From Paraburkholderia sp. HP33-1 (GTDB lineage Bacteria > Pseudomonadota > Gammaproteobacteria > Burkholderiales > Burkholderiaceae), in contig NZ_JAJEJR010000002.1 in assembly GCF_021390595.1 (NCBI RefSeq), positions 248,001 through 312,000 on the forward strand: 64,000 nucleotides of DNA. The letters are read 5' to 3'. Positions 60,602 through 64,000 of this stretch are shown here, piece after piece. Every line of letters begins with the position of its first letter. Position 1 is the first letter of the stretch. The position numbers and the translations under genes were made by a program. The notes below the pieces were generated by a model that did not search any database, had not been told where the DNA came from, and worked only from the letters and a program-made list of their open reading frames with translations.

Positions 60602-61645
60602 ATGTCGGATCAGATTAATGGACGTCGCCGTCGCTTTCTCGGAACGGCCGTTGCGGGTATCAGCCTGCTCGAATTGGGACTGAGCGGCCTCGCGCATGCG
60701 CAATCGGCCGATACGGCCGGCAATGTGAAAGCGGGTACGCGCATCGCGTCGTTCGAGAACATTCGTTCGATCAATGCCGGCACGCTGAACGTCAGCTACG
60801 CGGAAGCGGGTCCGCAGAACGGACCCGTGGTCATCCTTCTGCACGGCTGGCCGTACGACCCCTACAGCTTCGCCGAAGTGACGCCGTTGCTCGCGGCGGC
60901 CGGTTATCGCGTGATCGTGCCTTATCTGCGCGGCTACGGCGGCACGCGTTTTCTGTCGGCGGATACGCCGCGCAACGGTCAACAGGCGGTGGTCGCGGTC
61001 GACCTCATCAACCTGATGGACGCATTGAAAATCGACAAGGCCGTGCTCGGCGGCTTCGACTGGGGCGCGCGTACGGTGAATATCGTCGCCGCGTTGTGGC
61101 CGCAACGCGTGAAGGCGATGGTGTCGGTGAGCGGATATCTGATCGGCAGCCAGGAAGCGAACCGCGCGCCGTTGCCGCCTAAGGCCGAGCTTGCGTGGTG
61201 GTATCAGTTCTATTTCGCCACCGAGCGTGGCCGCGCGGGTTATGAAGCGAACCGTCATGACTTCAACAAGCTGATCTGGCATACCGCCTCGCCGAAATGG
61301 AATTTCGACGACGCCACGTTCGAGCGCTCCGCCGAATCGTTCAATAACCCGGACCATGTTGCCGTGGTGATTCACAACTACCGCTGGCGTCTGGGGCTCG
61401 CGCAGGGCAAGCCGCAATACGACGAACTCGAAAAGCGCCTAGCGACCGGACCGACGATCGCGGTGCCGACCATCACGCTCGAAGGCGACGCGAACGGCGC
61501 CGCGCATCCCGAGCCCGCAGCATACGCGAAGAAGTTTACCGGCAAGTATCAGCACCGCAATATCAGCGGCGGCATCGGCCACAACCTGCCGCAGGAAGCA
61601 CCGAAAGCCTTTGCGGATGCGATTCTCGACGTCACGCGGCTTTGA
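60602..61645 (+). CDS. Exported epoxide-hydrolase/dehalogenase-like alpha/beta hydrolase
   Basis: About 347 residues. A Tat-like signal (GRRRRFLGTAVAGISLLELG) precedes the alpha/beta-hydrolase core. The oxyanion HGWPYDPYSF and the nucleophile Asp153 in GGFDWGAR (Asp instead of Ser) are typical of epoxide hydrolases or haloalkane dehalogenases. The His is in GGIGHNLPQEAP. The ATG at 60602 is preferred because AAAGGAG lies seven bases upstream; an ATG at 60596 is too close. The reaction would be hydrolysis of an epoxide or C-halogen bond via an ester intermediate. Confidence 0.85.
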   Translation: MSDQINGRRRRFLGTAVAGISLLELGLSGLAHAQSADTAGNVKAGTRIASFENIRSINAGTLNVSYAEAGPQNGPVVILLHGWPYDPYSFAEVTPLLAAAGYRVIVPYLRGYGGTRFLSADTPRNGQQAVVAVDLINLMDALKIDKAVLGGFDWGARTVNIVAALWPQRVKAMVSVSGYLIGSQEANRAPLPPKAELAWWYQFYFATERGRAGYEANRHDFNKLIWHTASPKWNFDDATFERSAESFNNPDHVAVVIHNYRWRLGLAQGKPQYDELEKRLATGPTIAVPTITLEGDANGAAHPEPAAYAKKFTGKYQHRNISGGIGHNLPQEAPKAFADAILDVTRL

Positions 61646-61675
61646 TGCGATATCCGAAATGCCTCGAAGCGCTTT

Positions 61676-61693
61676 TTTGTATCGCAATGTATC
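61676..61693 (+). promoter_or_regulatory. GATACA-type tandem repeat upstream of the DUF4148 gene
   Basis: TTTGTATCGCAATGTATC is the reverse complement of GATACA-TTGC-GATACA-AA, nearly the same as the site upstream of ccdA. Confidence 0.4.
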
Positions 61694-61746
61694 AACACCG
61701 TACGCGGACAAAGACGCTTGCAGAAACAGGGGGTGACGAAAACATT

Positions 61747-61835
61747 GCAGATACGTTGGCGCGTTCAAATGTCTTCACGCAAGGTTGATTCACAACGTTG
61801 CGTGTGAATCAGGCGGGACATGACAGCGTATCTGC
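61747..61835. repeat. Nested inverted repeats upstream of the DUF4148 gene
   Basis: Outer arms GCAGATACG (61747-61755) and CGTATCTGC (61827-61835), nine perfect pairs, enclose inner arms TGATTCACA (61786-61794) and TGTGAATCA (61803-61811), also nine perfect pairs. They lie 65-150 bases before the start codon. Operator or folded leader are both possible. Confidence 0.55.
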
Positions 61836-61899
61836 GTTGATGGCTTCGCGTCCCGCTCAATCATTTAATCCCTAGTGGTTTGATATCCGGAGAAGACTC

Positions 61900-62247
61900 A
61901 TGAAATTCGTTCAATCGCTGATCGTCGCCGCACTCGTTGCCGCTCCCGTCGTTTCGTTCGGGCAATCGCAGCCGCAACAGGCTCTTACCCGGGCTGAAGT
62001 CCGCGCGGAACTGGTCCAGTTGGAAAAGGCCGGCTACAGCCCCGCGAGCGACAACGCGCAATACCCGAACAACATCGAGGCAGCGCAGGCGCGTATCAGC
62101 GCGGGCCATGACGCGACCGCTTACGGTGGCGCCGCGAACGGCGGTTCGGGTTCGGGCTCGCGCACGCAGATGAAGCATGCGGCGGCGGACGACGCGAACG
62201 ACGGCTCCAACGTGATCGGCCTCGGTTCGATCTACGCGCATTCGTGA
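61900..62247 (+). CDS. DUF4148 exported protein
   Basis: 115 residues. The signal peptide ends near SFGQ. The LTRAEVRAELVQLEKAGYSP segment is the DUF4148 signature, a family largely confined to Burkholderiaceae, and YPNNIEAAQARI follows. The tail is Gly/Ser-rich. The function is unknown. Its long upstream region is rich in repeats. Confidence 0.9.
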   Translation: MKFVQSLIVAALVAAPVVSFGQSQPQQALTRAEVRAELVQLEKAGYSPASDNAQYPNNIEAAQARISAGHDATAYGGAANGGSGSGSRTQMKHAAADDANDGSNVIGLGSIYAHS

Positions 62248-62315
62248 TCGGGTGTAAATCTGCACGCTGTCCGCGCGAATTGACTCGCATCGAAGCGCGG
62301 ACGGCTCATACCGAC

Positions 62316-62528
62316 AAGCCGTCGTGCTTCGTCGCGCCGATTCAACGTGACTTCGGGCAGCGCCACGTCCGCGAAGCCGAGCTTCTGCTGATCGAGCAAC
62401 GCGACATAGCTGAGGAGATACGCTTCGTTTCCGAGCTGCCGCGAGCGATTCCAGCAAGCGGTGGTCGACATGCCGACCTGTTCGGCACGCTCCGCGTCCG
62501 GGACAACCGTCCGGACCGCAGTCCTCAC
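62316..62528 (-). pseudogene. Remnant of an Lrp/AsnC-family regulator
   Basis: The leftward frame reads VGMSTTACWNRSRQL, then YVALLDQQKLGFADVALPEVTL. These match the Lrp/AsnC recognition helix (LSTTACWNRV) and the start of its RAM domain. The N-terminal helices are degenerate, the link between the two blocks is altered and the sequence ends after the first RAM strand, so only about 70 of about 150 residues remain. Confidence 0.6.
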
Positions 62529-62622
62529 GATCGGCGATCCTGCGCGGCCACAAGCCGCCCATCGGGGTCTCGCCGCATTGGTCTATCGAACTCTCTTCTG
62601 CCCGCTGATTCGCCGGTTAATT

Positions 62623-62667
62623 AAAACGGCACCCGTCGCGCACATAACACGAGCAGGGTGCCGTTTT
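62623..62667 (-). terminator. Strong terminator after the peptide gene (bidirectional)
   Basis: AAAACGGCACCC and GGGTGCCGTTTT form a 12-pair stem with a 21-base loop, T-rich on both strands. It lies 26 bases after the stop of the leftward peptide gene at 62693. Confidence 0.85.
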
Positions 62668-62692
62668 TCCAATTGCGGGCACGTCGCGCGTC

Positions 62693-62899
62693 CTATAGAT
62701 AAGTTCCTTTAATGCGGCCTTCGAAGATCGCGGTGTTGATGTCCCAATCGTCGACGGTACCCGTGCCGCCGCCGTCCACCGTGACGACGACCGAGCGGCC
62801 GCCGCGCAGCGTCTTCATCTGATCGACGGTCAGTGCTTTTTCGTGTGATGGGTCCCCCGCGCAACGCGGTAGGTCTTTGATGATCACAGTGGCTTTCAT
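62693..62899 (-). CDS. Double-glycine-leader peptide (C), 68 residues
   Basis: The N-terminus has VIIKDL followed by the leader ALTVDQMKTLRGG. Relative to the GG (-2,-1), Leu is at -12, Met at -7 and Leu at -4, which is the classic double-glycine export leader spacing. The predicted core after GG is 34 residues, Gly/Thr/Val-rich with DDWDINTAIFEG, without Cys. AAGGAG lies eight bases before the ATG. It is the last of three similar minus-strand genes. A strong terminator follows. The leader has one Cys. It may be an unmodified bacteriocin-like peptide, a modified-peptide precursor, or a small secreted protein. Confidence 0.65.
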   Translation of the reverse strand: MKATVIIKDLPRCAGDPSHEKALTVDQMKTLRGGRSVVVTVDGGGTGTVDDWDINTAIFEGRIKGTYL

Positions 62900-63245
62900 G
62901 GCATGTCTCCTTGACTTGGAAAGGCGAGCACCGTGCGGCGCCCGCTTCTATTTCCGCAAGGCCCATGCCAATGTGAGAGGACGTAAGCCGCAACCTGGAG
63001 CGGGGGCCGCCATGCAAAGCCTGGTAAGGATGTCCGCTATAGGTCCGTTGAATCGCACTGGAAACGACTGCGATCACGAGTCGAAGTGTTCGCGCGGGTC
63101 CCACGAGTCGCGTGCGATTGGTTGGGGCGCAGCGCAGCGTCGCGCATGCCGAACCCCGGAGTGCAGGACGCAATCGGAAGCGCAAACAGAAACGGCACGC
63201 GCTATGTGCGCGTGCCGTCATGGTGAAACGCCCCGACGAGCCGAG
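62900..63245. other. Intergenic region between peptide genes, with a hairpin terminator
   Basis: 346 bases. At 63191-63217 ACGGCACGCG and CGCGTGCCGT form a ten-pair stem with T-rich sequence after it on the minus strand (TTTCTGTTTG), ending the transcript of the middle peptide gene. The rest should hold the promoter of the last peptide gene; no convincing pair of boxes was found. No other gene is supported. Confidence 0.6.
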
Positions 63246-63464
63246 CTAGCGGCGCTGCCGTTTGCGCGGCGAGGCTGCTTCGGCGATACGCTCATGCGCG
63301 GCCGGAAAGCCTGGAGGATATTCGACGACGCGCGTCGCGGCCGGCACCAGCGGTGCGGCGAGACTCGAGCGCGCGCCCACGCGCGCGCCGCCGACGATCG
63401 CGGCCATCGCCTCGCGGTCCAGTTGGACGCTCTCGGTCAGATCCTTGATGATGAGCTTGGCCAT
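63246..63464 (-). CDS. Double-glycine-leader peptide (B), 72 residues
   Basis: The leader LIIKDLTESVQLDREAMAAI ends in VGG. Leu at -12, Met at -7, Ile at -4 and GG at -2/-1 match the other two. The core after GG is 46 residues, Ala/Pro/Arg-rich with a basic end (SPRKRQRR) and no Cys. GGAG lies six bases before the ATG. A stable hairpin with a T run stands just before its ribosome site, and a terminator follows its stop. Confidence 0.68.
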   Translation of the reverse strand: MAKLIIKDLTESVQLDREAMAAIVGGARVGARSSLAAPLVPAATRVVEYPPGFPAAHERIAEAASPRKRQRR

Positions 63465-63486
63465 AACGGCTCCAGAAAAACGCTCC

Positions 63487-63517
63487 GGCGGCCGGACCCT
63501 TTCGGATTCCGGCCGCC
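63487..63517 (-). promoter_or_regulatory. Terminator-like hairpin directly before peptide gene B
   Basis: GGCGGCCGGA and TCCGGCCGCC form a ten-pair, very GC-rich stem with an 11-base loop on the minus strand; GGAGCGTTTTTC follows, and the ribosome site of gene B comes right after it. It can end transcripts of gene A or attenuate gene B. A possible -10 (TATACT, 63574-63579) lies upstream. Confidence 0.6.
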
Positions 63518-63659
63518 GCGCTTGGAAGGTATTTGGAGTCTTGTTCGTTGTACTGAGGTCTCAACGCACTATCAGTATAGGAAATCCGATCGCGCCGCGC
63601 TTGGCCGTGGTGTTGCCGAGGCAGTGAAGGAACCTGCGTTCCTCCGTTGCCGCCTCGCC

Positions 63660-63947
63660 TTACACGACGGAGAAGTTGGCTCCCCAAAGCGTGGGGTCGA
63701 CGTTCAGCTTCAGCGGCACGAAACCCGCGCCGATCACACCGATGTTGTTGAGCGCTGCGACTTGGACGTCTTGCTGCTGAACCAGATTCTGATTGACTGT
63801 GACGTTGACATTGGCGATGCCGGCAAGGCTGCCGAGACCGCCCGCGGGGGTGGGCACCTTGCTGCCGGTGCCGCCGGCGATCCCGGACATGGCCCGGCGG
63901 TCGAGTTCGCGGGTGCCGGACAGATCGCGAATCATGAGGGATGACAT
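63660..63947 (-). CDS. Double-glycine-leader peptide (A), 95 residues
   Basis: The leader MIRDLSGTRELDRRAMSGI ends in AGG. Leu at -12, Met at -7, Ile at -4 and GG at -2/-1 again fit. The core is about 69 residues, rich in Val, Asn, Gln and Gly with no Cys (ANVNVTVNQNLVQQQDVQVA), and resembles a beta-rich or self-assembling segment. GGAG lies eight bases before the ATG. It is the first of the three genes within the window; earlier members or processing genes could lie beyond base 64000. Confidence 0.68.
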   Translation of the reverse strand: MSSLMIRDLSGTRELDRRAMSGIAGGTGSKVPTPAGGLGSLAGIANVNVTVNQNLVQQQDVQVAALNNIGVIGAGFVPLKLNVDPTLWGANFSVV

Positions 63948-64000
63948 GGCGTTTCTCCAAAGAAGTACGGAAAGCGGACATGAATGGCGCGCGGCGGAGC

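What the first reader, a model, noticed from the sequence alone, without database searches (positions are those of the whole stretch)
62693..63947. Three tandem double-glycine-leader peptide genes with one shared leader and unrelated cores
Seen: three consecutive minus-strand genes with good ribosome sites encode peptides of 95, 72 and 68 residues. All begin with an I-x-DL motif (MIRDL, IIKDL, IIKDL) and reach a GG preceded by Leu at -12, Met at -7 and Ile/Leu at -4. After GG the sequences share nothing. Known: this residue spacing is that of leaders removed by C39-type peptidase ABC exporters and of some RiPP precursors. Inference: one export or modification machine handles several different peptides. 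No such machine is in the window, and the cores lack Cys, arguing against lanthipeptides and disulfide bacteriocins.
Basis: partly seen in the sequence, partly recalled or inferred. Interest (0 to 1): 0.88.

Follow-up and report, generated by a model that had tools for sequence, protein, structure and literature searches.

The report
Exported peptides of a Paraburkholderia secretion system
Three small genes in a bacterium of the genus Paraburkholderia most likely make peptides that one nearby secretion machine trims and exports together; related sets, with the same machine and the same kind of gene switch, occur in many related bacteria, and what the peptides do outside the cell is not yet known.

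Summary
The three genes are real and conserved. They belong to a set of at least six GG-leader peptides around a type I exporter operon whose transporter starts 13.6 kb past the window end: outer-membrane channel, FHA protein, HlyD adaptor, PpiC-type isomerase, cNMP-C39-ABC transporter, then a sigma-54 activator. In 144 genus genomes all 109 with the exporter carry the leader, against 3 of 35 without; in 220 family genomes, 65 of 65 against 3 of 155. Fifteen genus genomes whose best match is a weaker C39-ABC-like transporter carry none. Three peptide families (A, D, E) often have a sigma-54 -24/-12 site at a fixed distance. Two corrections: the 68-residue peptide (D) keeps the GG spacing but is not recognised by a profile of the other leaders; its own sigma-54 site (7 of 7 D genes, own included) ties it to the set. 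The core of the 95-residue peptide (B) is weakly related to two families outside the window. No modifying enzyme was found among nine neighbours. Most likely function, inferred: Asn/Gln-rich surface or matrix proteins, like cyanobacterial EbfG; bacteriocin and signal readings stay open. New variant of a known kind; nothing was tested experimentally.

The parts
63660..63947 (-). Peptide B, 95 aa; predicted leader 26 aa (to GG), core 69 aa, 21% Asn+Gln in the family, no Cys; related cores in other Paraburkholderia, Aromatoleum, Noviherbaspirillum and Caballeronia loci
63870..63947 (-). GG leader of B (MSSLMIRDLSGTRELDRRAMSGIAGG)
63246..63464 (-). Peptide C, 72 aa; leader 26 aa, short basic core (family K+R 15%, P 12%), variable between genera
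63387..63464 (-). GG leader of C (MAKLIIKDLTESVQLDREAMAAIVGG)
62693..62899 (-). Peptide D, 68 aa; GG spacing kept, but leader not recognised by the profile of the others; 34-residue core highly conserved; found in own genome and 6 of the 20 genus genomes fetched (a lower bound)
62955..62970 (-). sigma-54-type -24/-12 site TGGCATGGGCCTTGCG upstream of D, at the same place (69-71 nt before ATG) in 7 of 7 D genes, own included
63191..63219 (-). terminator-like hairpin (12 pairs) after C, probable end of the A1-B-C unit
63484..63496 (-). short terminator-like hairpin (5 pairs) just before the C gene; possible attenuator, not tested

Best explanation
The three genes encode precursors of secreted small proteins. 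They belong to a set of at least six (A1-B-C probably one operon; D, A2 and E each with its own promoter) that surrounds a dedicated type I secretion system. A sigma-54 activator encoded right behind the exporter probably turns on the peptide promoters (inferred); a neighbouring Ser/Thr kinase, PP2C phosphatase and FHA protein probably tune the system (inferred from position), and the cyclic-nucleotide-type domains on the exporter may gate it (inferred from HetC). The leader docks on the C39 domain, which cuts after GG while the ABC motor passes the core through the HlyD adaptor and the TolC-type channel to the outside (established for the family, inferred here). The most likely role of the Asn/Gln-rich, weakly charged cores (A, B, E) is to assemble on the cell surface or in a matrix, as the EbfG proteins do; C and D would be minor, accessory or regulatory secreted components. 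My odds: export of B and C 0.85, of D 0.65; matrix or surface role about 0.5. The figure below is for export of the set by this machine.
For: Exporter operon past the window with C39, ABC and two cNMP stretches. The six profile leaders of the genome (E <= 1.1e-11, but they are the profile's own rows) lie around it and the next genome match is weak (E 0.045). Genus sample: exporter 109 of 144, all 109 with leader, 3 leader-only, 32 neither; the 15 genomes whose best match is weaker (E 1e-131 to 1e-147; 36-38% identity in the 9 of them that the list shows) have no leader. Family sample: 65 of 65 exporter genomes with leader, 3 leader-only, 152 neither. One genus leader-only genome (G115) has the same cluster on a contig whose end cuts hlyD. 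Sigma-54 site (>= 9 of 10 letters): D 7 of 7, A 89 of 122, E 69 of 93, against 0 of 140, 13 of 2440 and 15 of 1860 shuffled. Gene order OMF-FHA-HlyD-PPIase-exporter-activator is kept in most of the Caballeronia, Cupriavidus and Aromatoleum loci compared. Core dN/dS below 0.5. E found in 20 of 20, C in 18 of 20 fetched genus genomes. EbfG1-3 form amyloid and EbfG secretion needs the C39 cysteine of PteB (PMC9981879 passages; PMC4997328 part 1).
Against: D is not recognised by leave-one-out leader profiles. Three leader-positive genomes of the family sample (G577, G587, G607) have no exporter orthologue, only 27-43% ABC matches; G130 has one weak leader ending in GD and no exporter. In the class sample G348 has a leader hit without orthologue, and 6 genomes with a 35-39% relative of the exporter lack this leader, so the link holds for close orthologues only. 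Four of 80 named exporter loci showed no leader within the stretch held, and three loci (L142, L143, L155) lack OMF, FHA and HlyD beside the exporter. For the matrix role there is only composition and analogy: no Pfam, NCBIfam or PDB match above cut-off, and structure models are of low confidence. The weak family matches that exist are to GG-leader bacteriocin or RiPP models. Co-occurrence counts are not phylogenetically independent.
Confidence: 0.8

Rival explanations
1. The peptides are bacteriocins of the class II microcin kind, or contact-dependent like Cdz of Caulobacter, exported by the same machine to harm competitors.
For: GG leader plus C39 T1SS is the microcin arrangement (PMC13174018 passages); Cdz proteins are small, aggregate on the surface and use a type I system (PMC5380434 passages); C cores are basic (15% K+R) and vary between genera; E and F have sub-threshold matches to bacteriocin models, in the leader and first core residues (E 0.0055-0.26).
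Against: No clear immunity candidate: a simple scan of three stretches found hydrophobic short ORFs only as two frames with signal-peptide-like starts and one frame antisense to another gene; the scan missed gene C, so it is not exhaustive. Core families A, B and E recur over genera with core dN/dS below 0.5 where measured, unlike fast-changing toxins (recalled). No glycine-zipper repeat was seen by eye, though B has a moderately hydrophobic stretch.
Confidence: 0.2
2. The peptides are signals: sigma-54-induced secreted peptides sensed by the producer or kin, with the kinase/FHA/phosphatase set as part of the response.
For: Neighbouring kinase, PP2C, FHA protein and sigma-54 activator; the HetC analogue binds ppGpp and is thought to export a signalling peptide (PMC10986499 passages).
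Against: Tandem copies of one family in some genomes (8, one cut by the stretch end, in L036 and 5 in L037) and cores mostly of 34-85 residues suit structural proteins better; I identified no receptor but did not search for one.
Confidence: 0.2
3. RiPP precursors: an enzyme modifies the cores before export.
For: The PPIase matches TIGR04500 'putative peptide maturation' at E 4e-28, below its cut-off; a caspase-FGE protein lies in the locus; D, A2 and F have sub-threshold matches to the rSAM-RiPP leader model TIGR04149 (E 0.07-0.15).
Against: The rest of the genome was not searched for such enzymes.
Confidence: 0.07
4. D alone is a cytosolic or regulatory small protein that merely resembles a GG peptide.
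For: Leave-one-out E 230; found in only 6 of 20 fetched genus genomes besides the own one (a lower bound because the profile and the stretches can miss it); acidic core unlike A, B, E.
Against: Same sigma-54 site as A and E at 69-71 nt in 7 of 7 D genes, same locus, GG spacing kept, and IIKDL start invariant except one I-to-V.
Confidence: 0.3

Closest known systems
EbfG1-4 / PteB of Synechococcus elongatus (PMC4997328, part 1 of 5 read; PMC9981879, passages)
   Same: Four clustered ~9-10 kDa precursors with GG motifs; a C39 peptidase transporter whose cysteine is needed for efficient secretion; mature forms of 6-7 kDa
   Different: Cyanobacterium; sequence relation of the cores not tested (EbfG sequences not fetched); secretion and amyloid shown there, only inferred here; sigma-54 and kinase/FHA parts not mentioned in what I read
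HetC of Nostoc PCC 7120 (PMC10986499, passages)
   Same: N-terminal cNMP-type domain, C39 peptidase and ABC exporter in one protein
   Different: HetC substrate unknown; here two cNMP stretches, a full T1SS operon and adjacent peptide genes
Cdz system of Caulobacter (PMC5380434, passages)
   Same: Two small surface proteins exported by a type I system
   Different: Glycine-zipper repeats and immunity protein CdzI, neither identified here
PCAT (PDB 4ry2, 6v9z), HlyB (7sgr), ComA (8hf4)
   Same: C39 or C39-like plus ABC part aligns from about residue 307-315 to the end (the name PCAT1 is recalled)
   Different: No cNMP part aligned; other substrates
Class II microcins (MccV type; PMC13174018, passages)
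   Same: GG leader, C39 T1SS
   Different: No immunity gene identified; recurrent Asn/Gln-rich cores

Membership tests
C39 peptidase-containing ABC exporter (PCAT) | C39, ABC membrane and ATPase domains in one protein | tested here: met
   PF03412 E 4.8e-39, PF00664, PF00005
C39 peptidase-containing ABC exporter (PCAT) | Catalytic Cys-His-Asp and upstream Gln of C39 (pattern recalled) | tested here: met
   Own protein read (QAEEMDCGAAC, HYVIVYG, DP); a loose motif search hit 75 of 80 named loci, the other 5 not examined
C39 peptidase-containing ABC exporter (PCAT) | Substrates with a leader ending in GG | tested here: met
   B and C by profile; D by spacing only; cleavage not testable
HetC-like exporter | cNMP-type domain in front of C39-ABC | tested here: met
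   PF00027, 2 stretches
HetC-like exporter | Ligand (ppGpp) control | not testable with these tools
   needs a binding assay
EbfG-like matrix proteins | Secreted, needed for biofilm, amyloid-forming | not testable with these tools
   only composition and analogy; AlphaFold models of low confidence
Class II microcin | Adjacent immunity protein | tested here: inconclusive
   no clear candidate, but the scan is simple and missed gene C
Class II microcin | Antibacterial activity | not testable with these tools
   needs an assay
RiPP / lanthipeptide | Modifying enzyme in the locus | tested here: not met
   none above cut-off among nine neighbours; the kinase matches LanL and LanKC far below cut-off, over its kinase stretch
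NHLP export system (TIGR03796) | Score above NCBIfam cut-off | tested here: not met
   563.8 bits against 853.3
HlyB-type T1SS ATPase (TIGR01846) | Score above NCBIfam cut-off | tested here: not met
   612.1 bits against 725.55
sigma-54 regulon | -24/-12 element at fixed distance and an activator with GAFTGA nearby | tested here: met
   GAFTGA read; dependence on rpoN not tested

The most novel reading that the evidence does not exclude
Paraburkholderia and relatives carry a sigma-54-switched, kinase/phosphatase-tuned and nucleotide-gated type I system that builds a mixed extracellular fibre or coat from several different GG-leader proteins: a proteobacterial counterpart of the EbfG matrix, separate from curli and Fap, with C and D as nucleator, cap or regulator.
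Probability: 0.3. Interest if true: 0.78.

Novelty: new variant of a known kind. Interest (0 to 1): 0.6.

Why it matters
It turns an isolated observation at a window edge into a defined secretion locus, present in 109 of 144 sampled genomes of the genus, with an identified exporter, a predicted switch and several peptide families that neither Pfam nor NCBIfam recognises above cut-off (one member each of A1, A2, B, C, D, E and F scanned). In six paper searches aimed at it (listings seen) I saw no description of this system; most subscription journals and all supplements were out of reach. If the cores assemble outside the cell it would be a new route to a matrix in these bacteria; if they kill or signal, it is a new peptide repertoire. 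Single-gene deletions would decide.

Tried and rejected
Rejected: lanthipeptide or disulfide bacteriocin for B, C and D (no enzyme among the nine neighbours scanned, no Cys). Chance leader: rejected for B and C by profile, co-occurrence and conservation. 'D is just another copy of the leader': rejected by leave-one-out; kept as a member on promoter and position only. 'All cores are unrelated': A, B and E share a weak C-terminal pattern (hhalign probability A-E 81%, A-B 65%, B-E 61%); F, C and D do not.

Led nowhere: structure models of A2 (pLDDT 65, pTM 0.27) and D (pLDDT 41); PDB search with the peptides; annotation in two plasmid records (no features listed in the stretch); Rfam on window 61500-64000; term searches of the main text of two P. 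phymatum rpoN papers (none of the terms; supplements not readable). A 5'-UTR inverted repeat before A genes is invariant rather than covarying, so its structure is not proven.

Rows dropped and limits: of 298 leader hits, 2 without a GG-like end and 2 with cores of 15 residues or fewer were dropped, 294 were clustered, 291 given a family letter (3 Aromatoleum peptides not), 290 used for the sigma-54 count. Family letters come from my own sequence patterns: at least one B-type core sits in A and several A-type cores from Aromatoleum sit in F. Unnamed-genome loci and named loci overlap (L027 and L078 lie on contigs of equal length and place), so peptide counts are not independent. Shuffles kept base composition only. 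All dN/dS values of a family share one reference; leader values are noisy, up to 1.6 for B. The match list was capped, so the 15 weaker genomes were got by subtraction and only 9 show their identity.

Full report
Where it lies. The window is G000:C2:248001-312000 of a 7.35 Mb genome in 4 contigs.

The observation. The three minus-strand genes are present with the stated lengths and motif positions. I call them B (95 aa, 63660-63947), C (72 aa, 63246-63464) and D (68 aa, 62693-62899). Neither Pfam nor NCBIfam has a match above cut-off. Extending past the window end shows three more: A1 (window-extended 64036-64308, minus), A2 (70561-70845, plus) and E (82818-83105, minus); these too have no match above cut-off, only sub-threshold ones to GG-leader models (ComC, TIGR04149, lactococcin G-beta) and to unrelated families. 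A1 is the first gene of the run A1-B-C, so the window edge hid it.

The machine. From about 71 to 81 kb in window-extended coordinates lie, on the plus strand, an outer-membrane efflux protein, an FHA-domain protein, a HlyD-type adaptor, a PpiC-type isomerase and a 1,022-residue protein with two cNMP-type stretches, a C39 peptidase, and ABC membrane and ATPase domains. A sigma-54 activator with a GAFTGA motif follows directly, then a PP2C phosphatase on the other strand; a Ser/Thr kinase and a caspase-FGE protein lie between A1 and A2. The genome has one other match to the C39 family, a 248-residue frame on C1, not studied further.

Leader and exporter go together. In 144 genus genomes the full-length exporter (>= 75% identity) is in 109 and the leader profile (E <= 0.1) in 112; 109 have both, 3 the leader only, 32 neither. 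Fifteen genomes have only a weaker match (E 1e-131 to 1e-147; 36-38% identity over about residues 315-1018 in the 9 shown); none has the leader. Of the 3 leader-only genomes, G115 is 86% complete and its leaders sit beside the same operon on a contig whose end cuts hlyD; in G129 the exporter match lacks much of the C39 stretch and the C-terminal end, and one A-type peptide gene is split between two frames while the E-type one is whole; G130 has one weak hit ending in GD. In 220 family genomes the counts are 65 exporter, 68 leader (E <= 1e-5), 65 both, 152 neither; the 3 leader-only genomes have no orthologue even at E 1e-40, only 27-43% ABC matches, and stay unexplained. In 274 class genomes the leader (E <= 1e-3) is in 4 (own, G306, G339, G348); own, G306 and G339 have the exporter at 68-100% identity, G348 does not; 5 genomes with a near-full-length 35-37% relative and 1 with a 39% relative without the N-terminal part lack the leader. 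In the own genome the six leaders, which are the rows of the profile, lie in C2:310798-331105 around the exporter; the next match is weak (C3, E 0.045). These counts are not corrected for relatedness.

Other hosts. A scan of named genomes kept the best 80 of 302 exporter relatives: Paraburkholderia, Caballeronia, Cupriavidus, Noviherbaspirillum, Herbaspirillum, Aromatoleum and a few others. In 76 of these 80 loci at least one leader lies within the stretch held; L111, L143, L155 and L157 show none. The order OMF-FHA-HlyD-PPIase-exporter-activator is seen in most of the loci compared that are long enough, but L142, L143 and L155 (Noviherbaspirillum, Herbaspirillum) have only PPIase, exporter and activator together, without OMF, FHA and HlyD.

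How alike are the leaders. Leave-one-out profiles find A1, A2, B, C and E at E 1.2e-9 to 1.1e-5 but miss D (E 230), with a search size of 150,000 ORFs that I assumed. D keeps Leu -12, Met -7, Leu -4 and GG, and its core is highly conserved in the own genome and the 6 of 20 fetched genus genomes where I found it. In the same 20, E was found in 20, C in 18 and B in 11 (B undercounts by at least one misfiled core).

The switch. I scored TGGCAC-N5-TTGC with fixed GG and GC in the 250 bases before each gene. Sites with 9 or more of 10 letters: D 7 of 7 (69-71 nt before ATG), A 89 of 122, E 69 of 93, F 7 of 27, B 0 of 16, C 0 of 25; shuffled upstream sequences gave 0 of 140, 13 of 2440, 15 of 1860, 2 of 540, 0 of 320 and 2 of 500 (shuffles keep base composition only). 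In the own genome A1, D and E score 9 and A2 scores 8. This fits one operon A1-B-C and separate D, A2 and E units; a terminator-like hairpin follows C. In the window as a whole the site is not over-represented (4 matches with up to one mismatch, 6 expected), but the only exact match is the one before D. With a looser pattern and no shuffle control, such sites also precede leaders in the distant genomes G339, G306 and G348 (1 of its 2), 3 of 4 in Burkholderia stagnalis and 2 of 5 in Caballeronia sp. SBC2.

The cores. B, C and D are unrelated to each other; A, B and E are weakly related at their C-terminal halves. A, B and E hold 20-21% Asn+Gln and 4-9% charged residues; C is basic; D is acidic, 34 residues and conserved. 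Core dN/dS against four relatives: B 0.22-0.49, C 0.09-0.44, D 0.20-0.35; E against its four 0.07-0.22 (one shared reference per family). Structure models were of low confidence.

Reading. Co-export by this machine is well supported by genome evidence and shown by no experiment. The closest analogue is the EbfG set and PteB of Synechococcus elongatus: small precursors with GG motifs and a C39 transporter whose cysteine is needed for efficient secretion (PMC4997328, part 1 of 5 read), three of four forming amyloid (PMC9981879, passages). The exporter architecture is that of HetC, whose cNMP-type domain binds ppGpp (PMC10986499, passages). I therefore favour a surface or matrix role at about 0.5, bacteriocin 0.2, signal 0.2. 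No RiPP enzyme was found among nine neighbours, and no clear immunity candidate by a simple scan. Six literature searches (listings seen) showed no description of this locus in the open library searched.

Noticed in passing
L003:3354-3372 (-) and L003:9497-9515 (+), just downstream of the sigma-54 sites of A1 and A2: Inverted repeat CGAGCA...TGCTCG in the 18 A-gene upstream stretches that I picked; 95% of pair cells formed but no two-sided changes, so hairpin or operator cannot be told apart. It is absent or degraded before some A genes printed (e.g. L039, L042, downstream tandem copies).
   Followed up: partly
L036:17121-20000 (+), L037:18300-19673 (+): Tandem arrays of family F peptides (GGGFASP...IPTIQNFGG): 8 in L036, the last cut by the stretch end, and 5 in L037.
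   Followed up: no
L003:5991-8105 (-): Protein with caspase (C14) and FGE-sulfatase domains between the peptide genes; role unknown.
   Followed up: no
L005:7922-8323 (+): Second C39 match of the genome: a 248-residue frame, beside an Asn-containing protein with a signal-peptide-like start (L005:8478-9287); possibly an amyloid locus of Fap type (recalled, not tested).
   Followed up: no
G129:C6:92914-95316 and L046: Exporter match in G129 lacks much of the C39 stretch and its C-terminal end, and one A-type peptide gene is split between two frames; described only.
   Followed up: no
L021:1378-1578 (-): Lone weak leader peptide of 66 aa on contig C3 of the own genome (MNTLNIHDLDKF..., E 0.045).
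   Followed up: no
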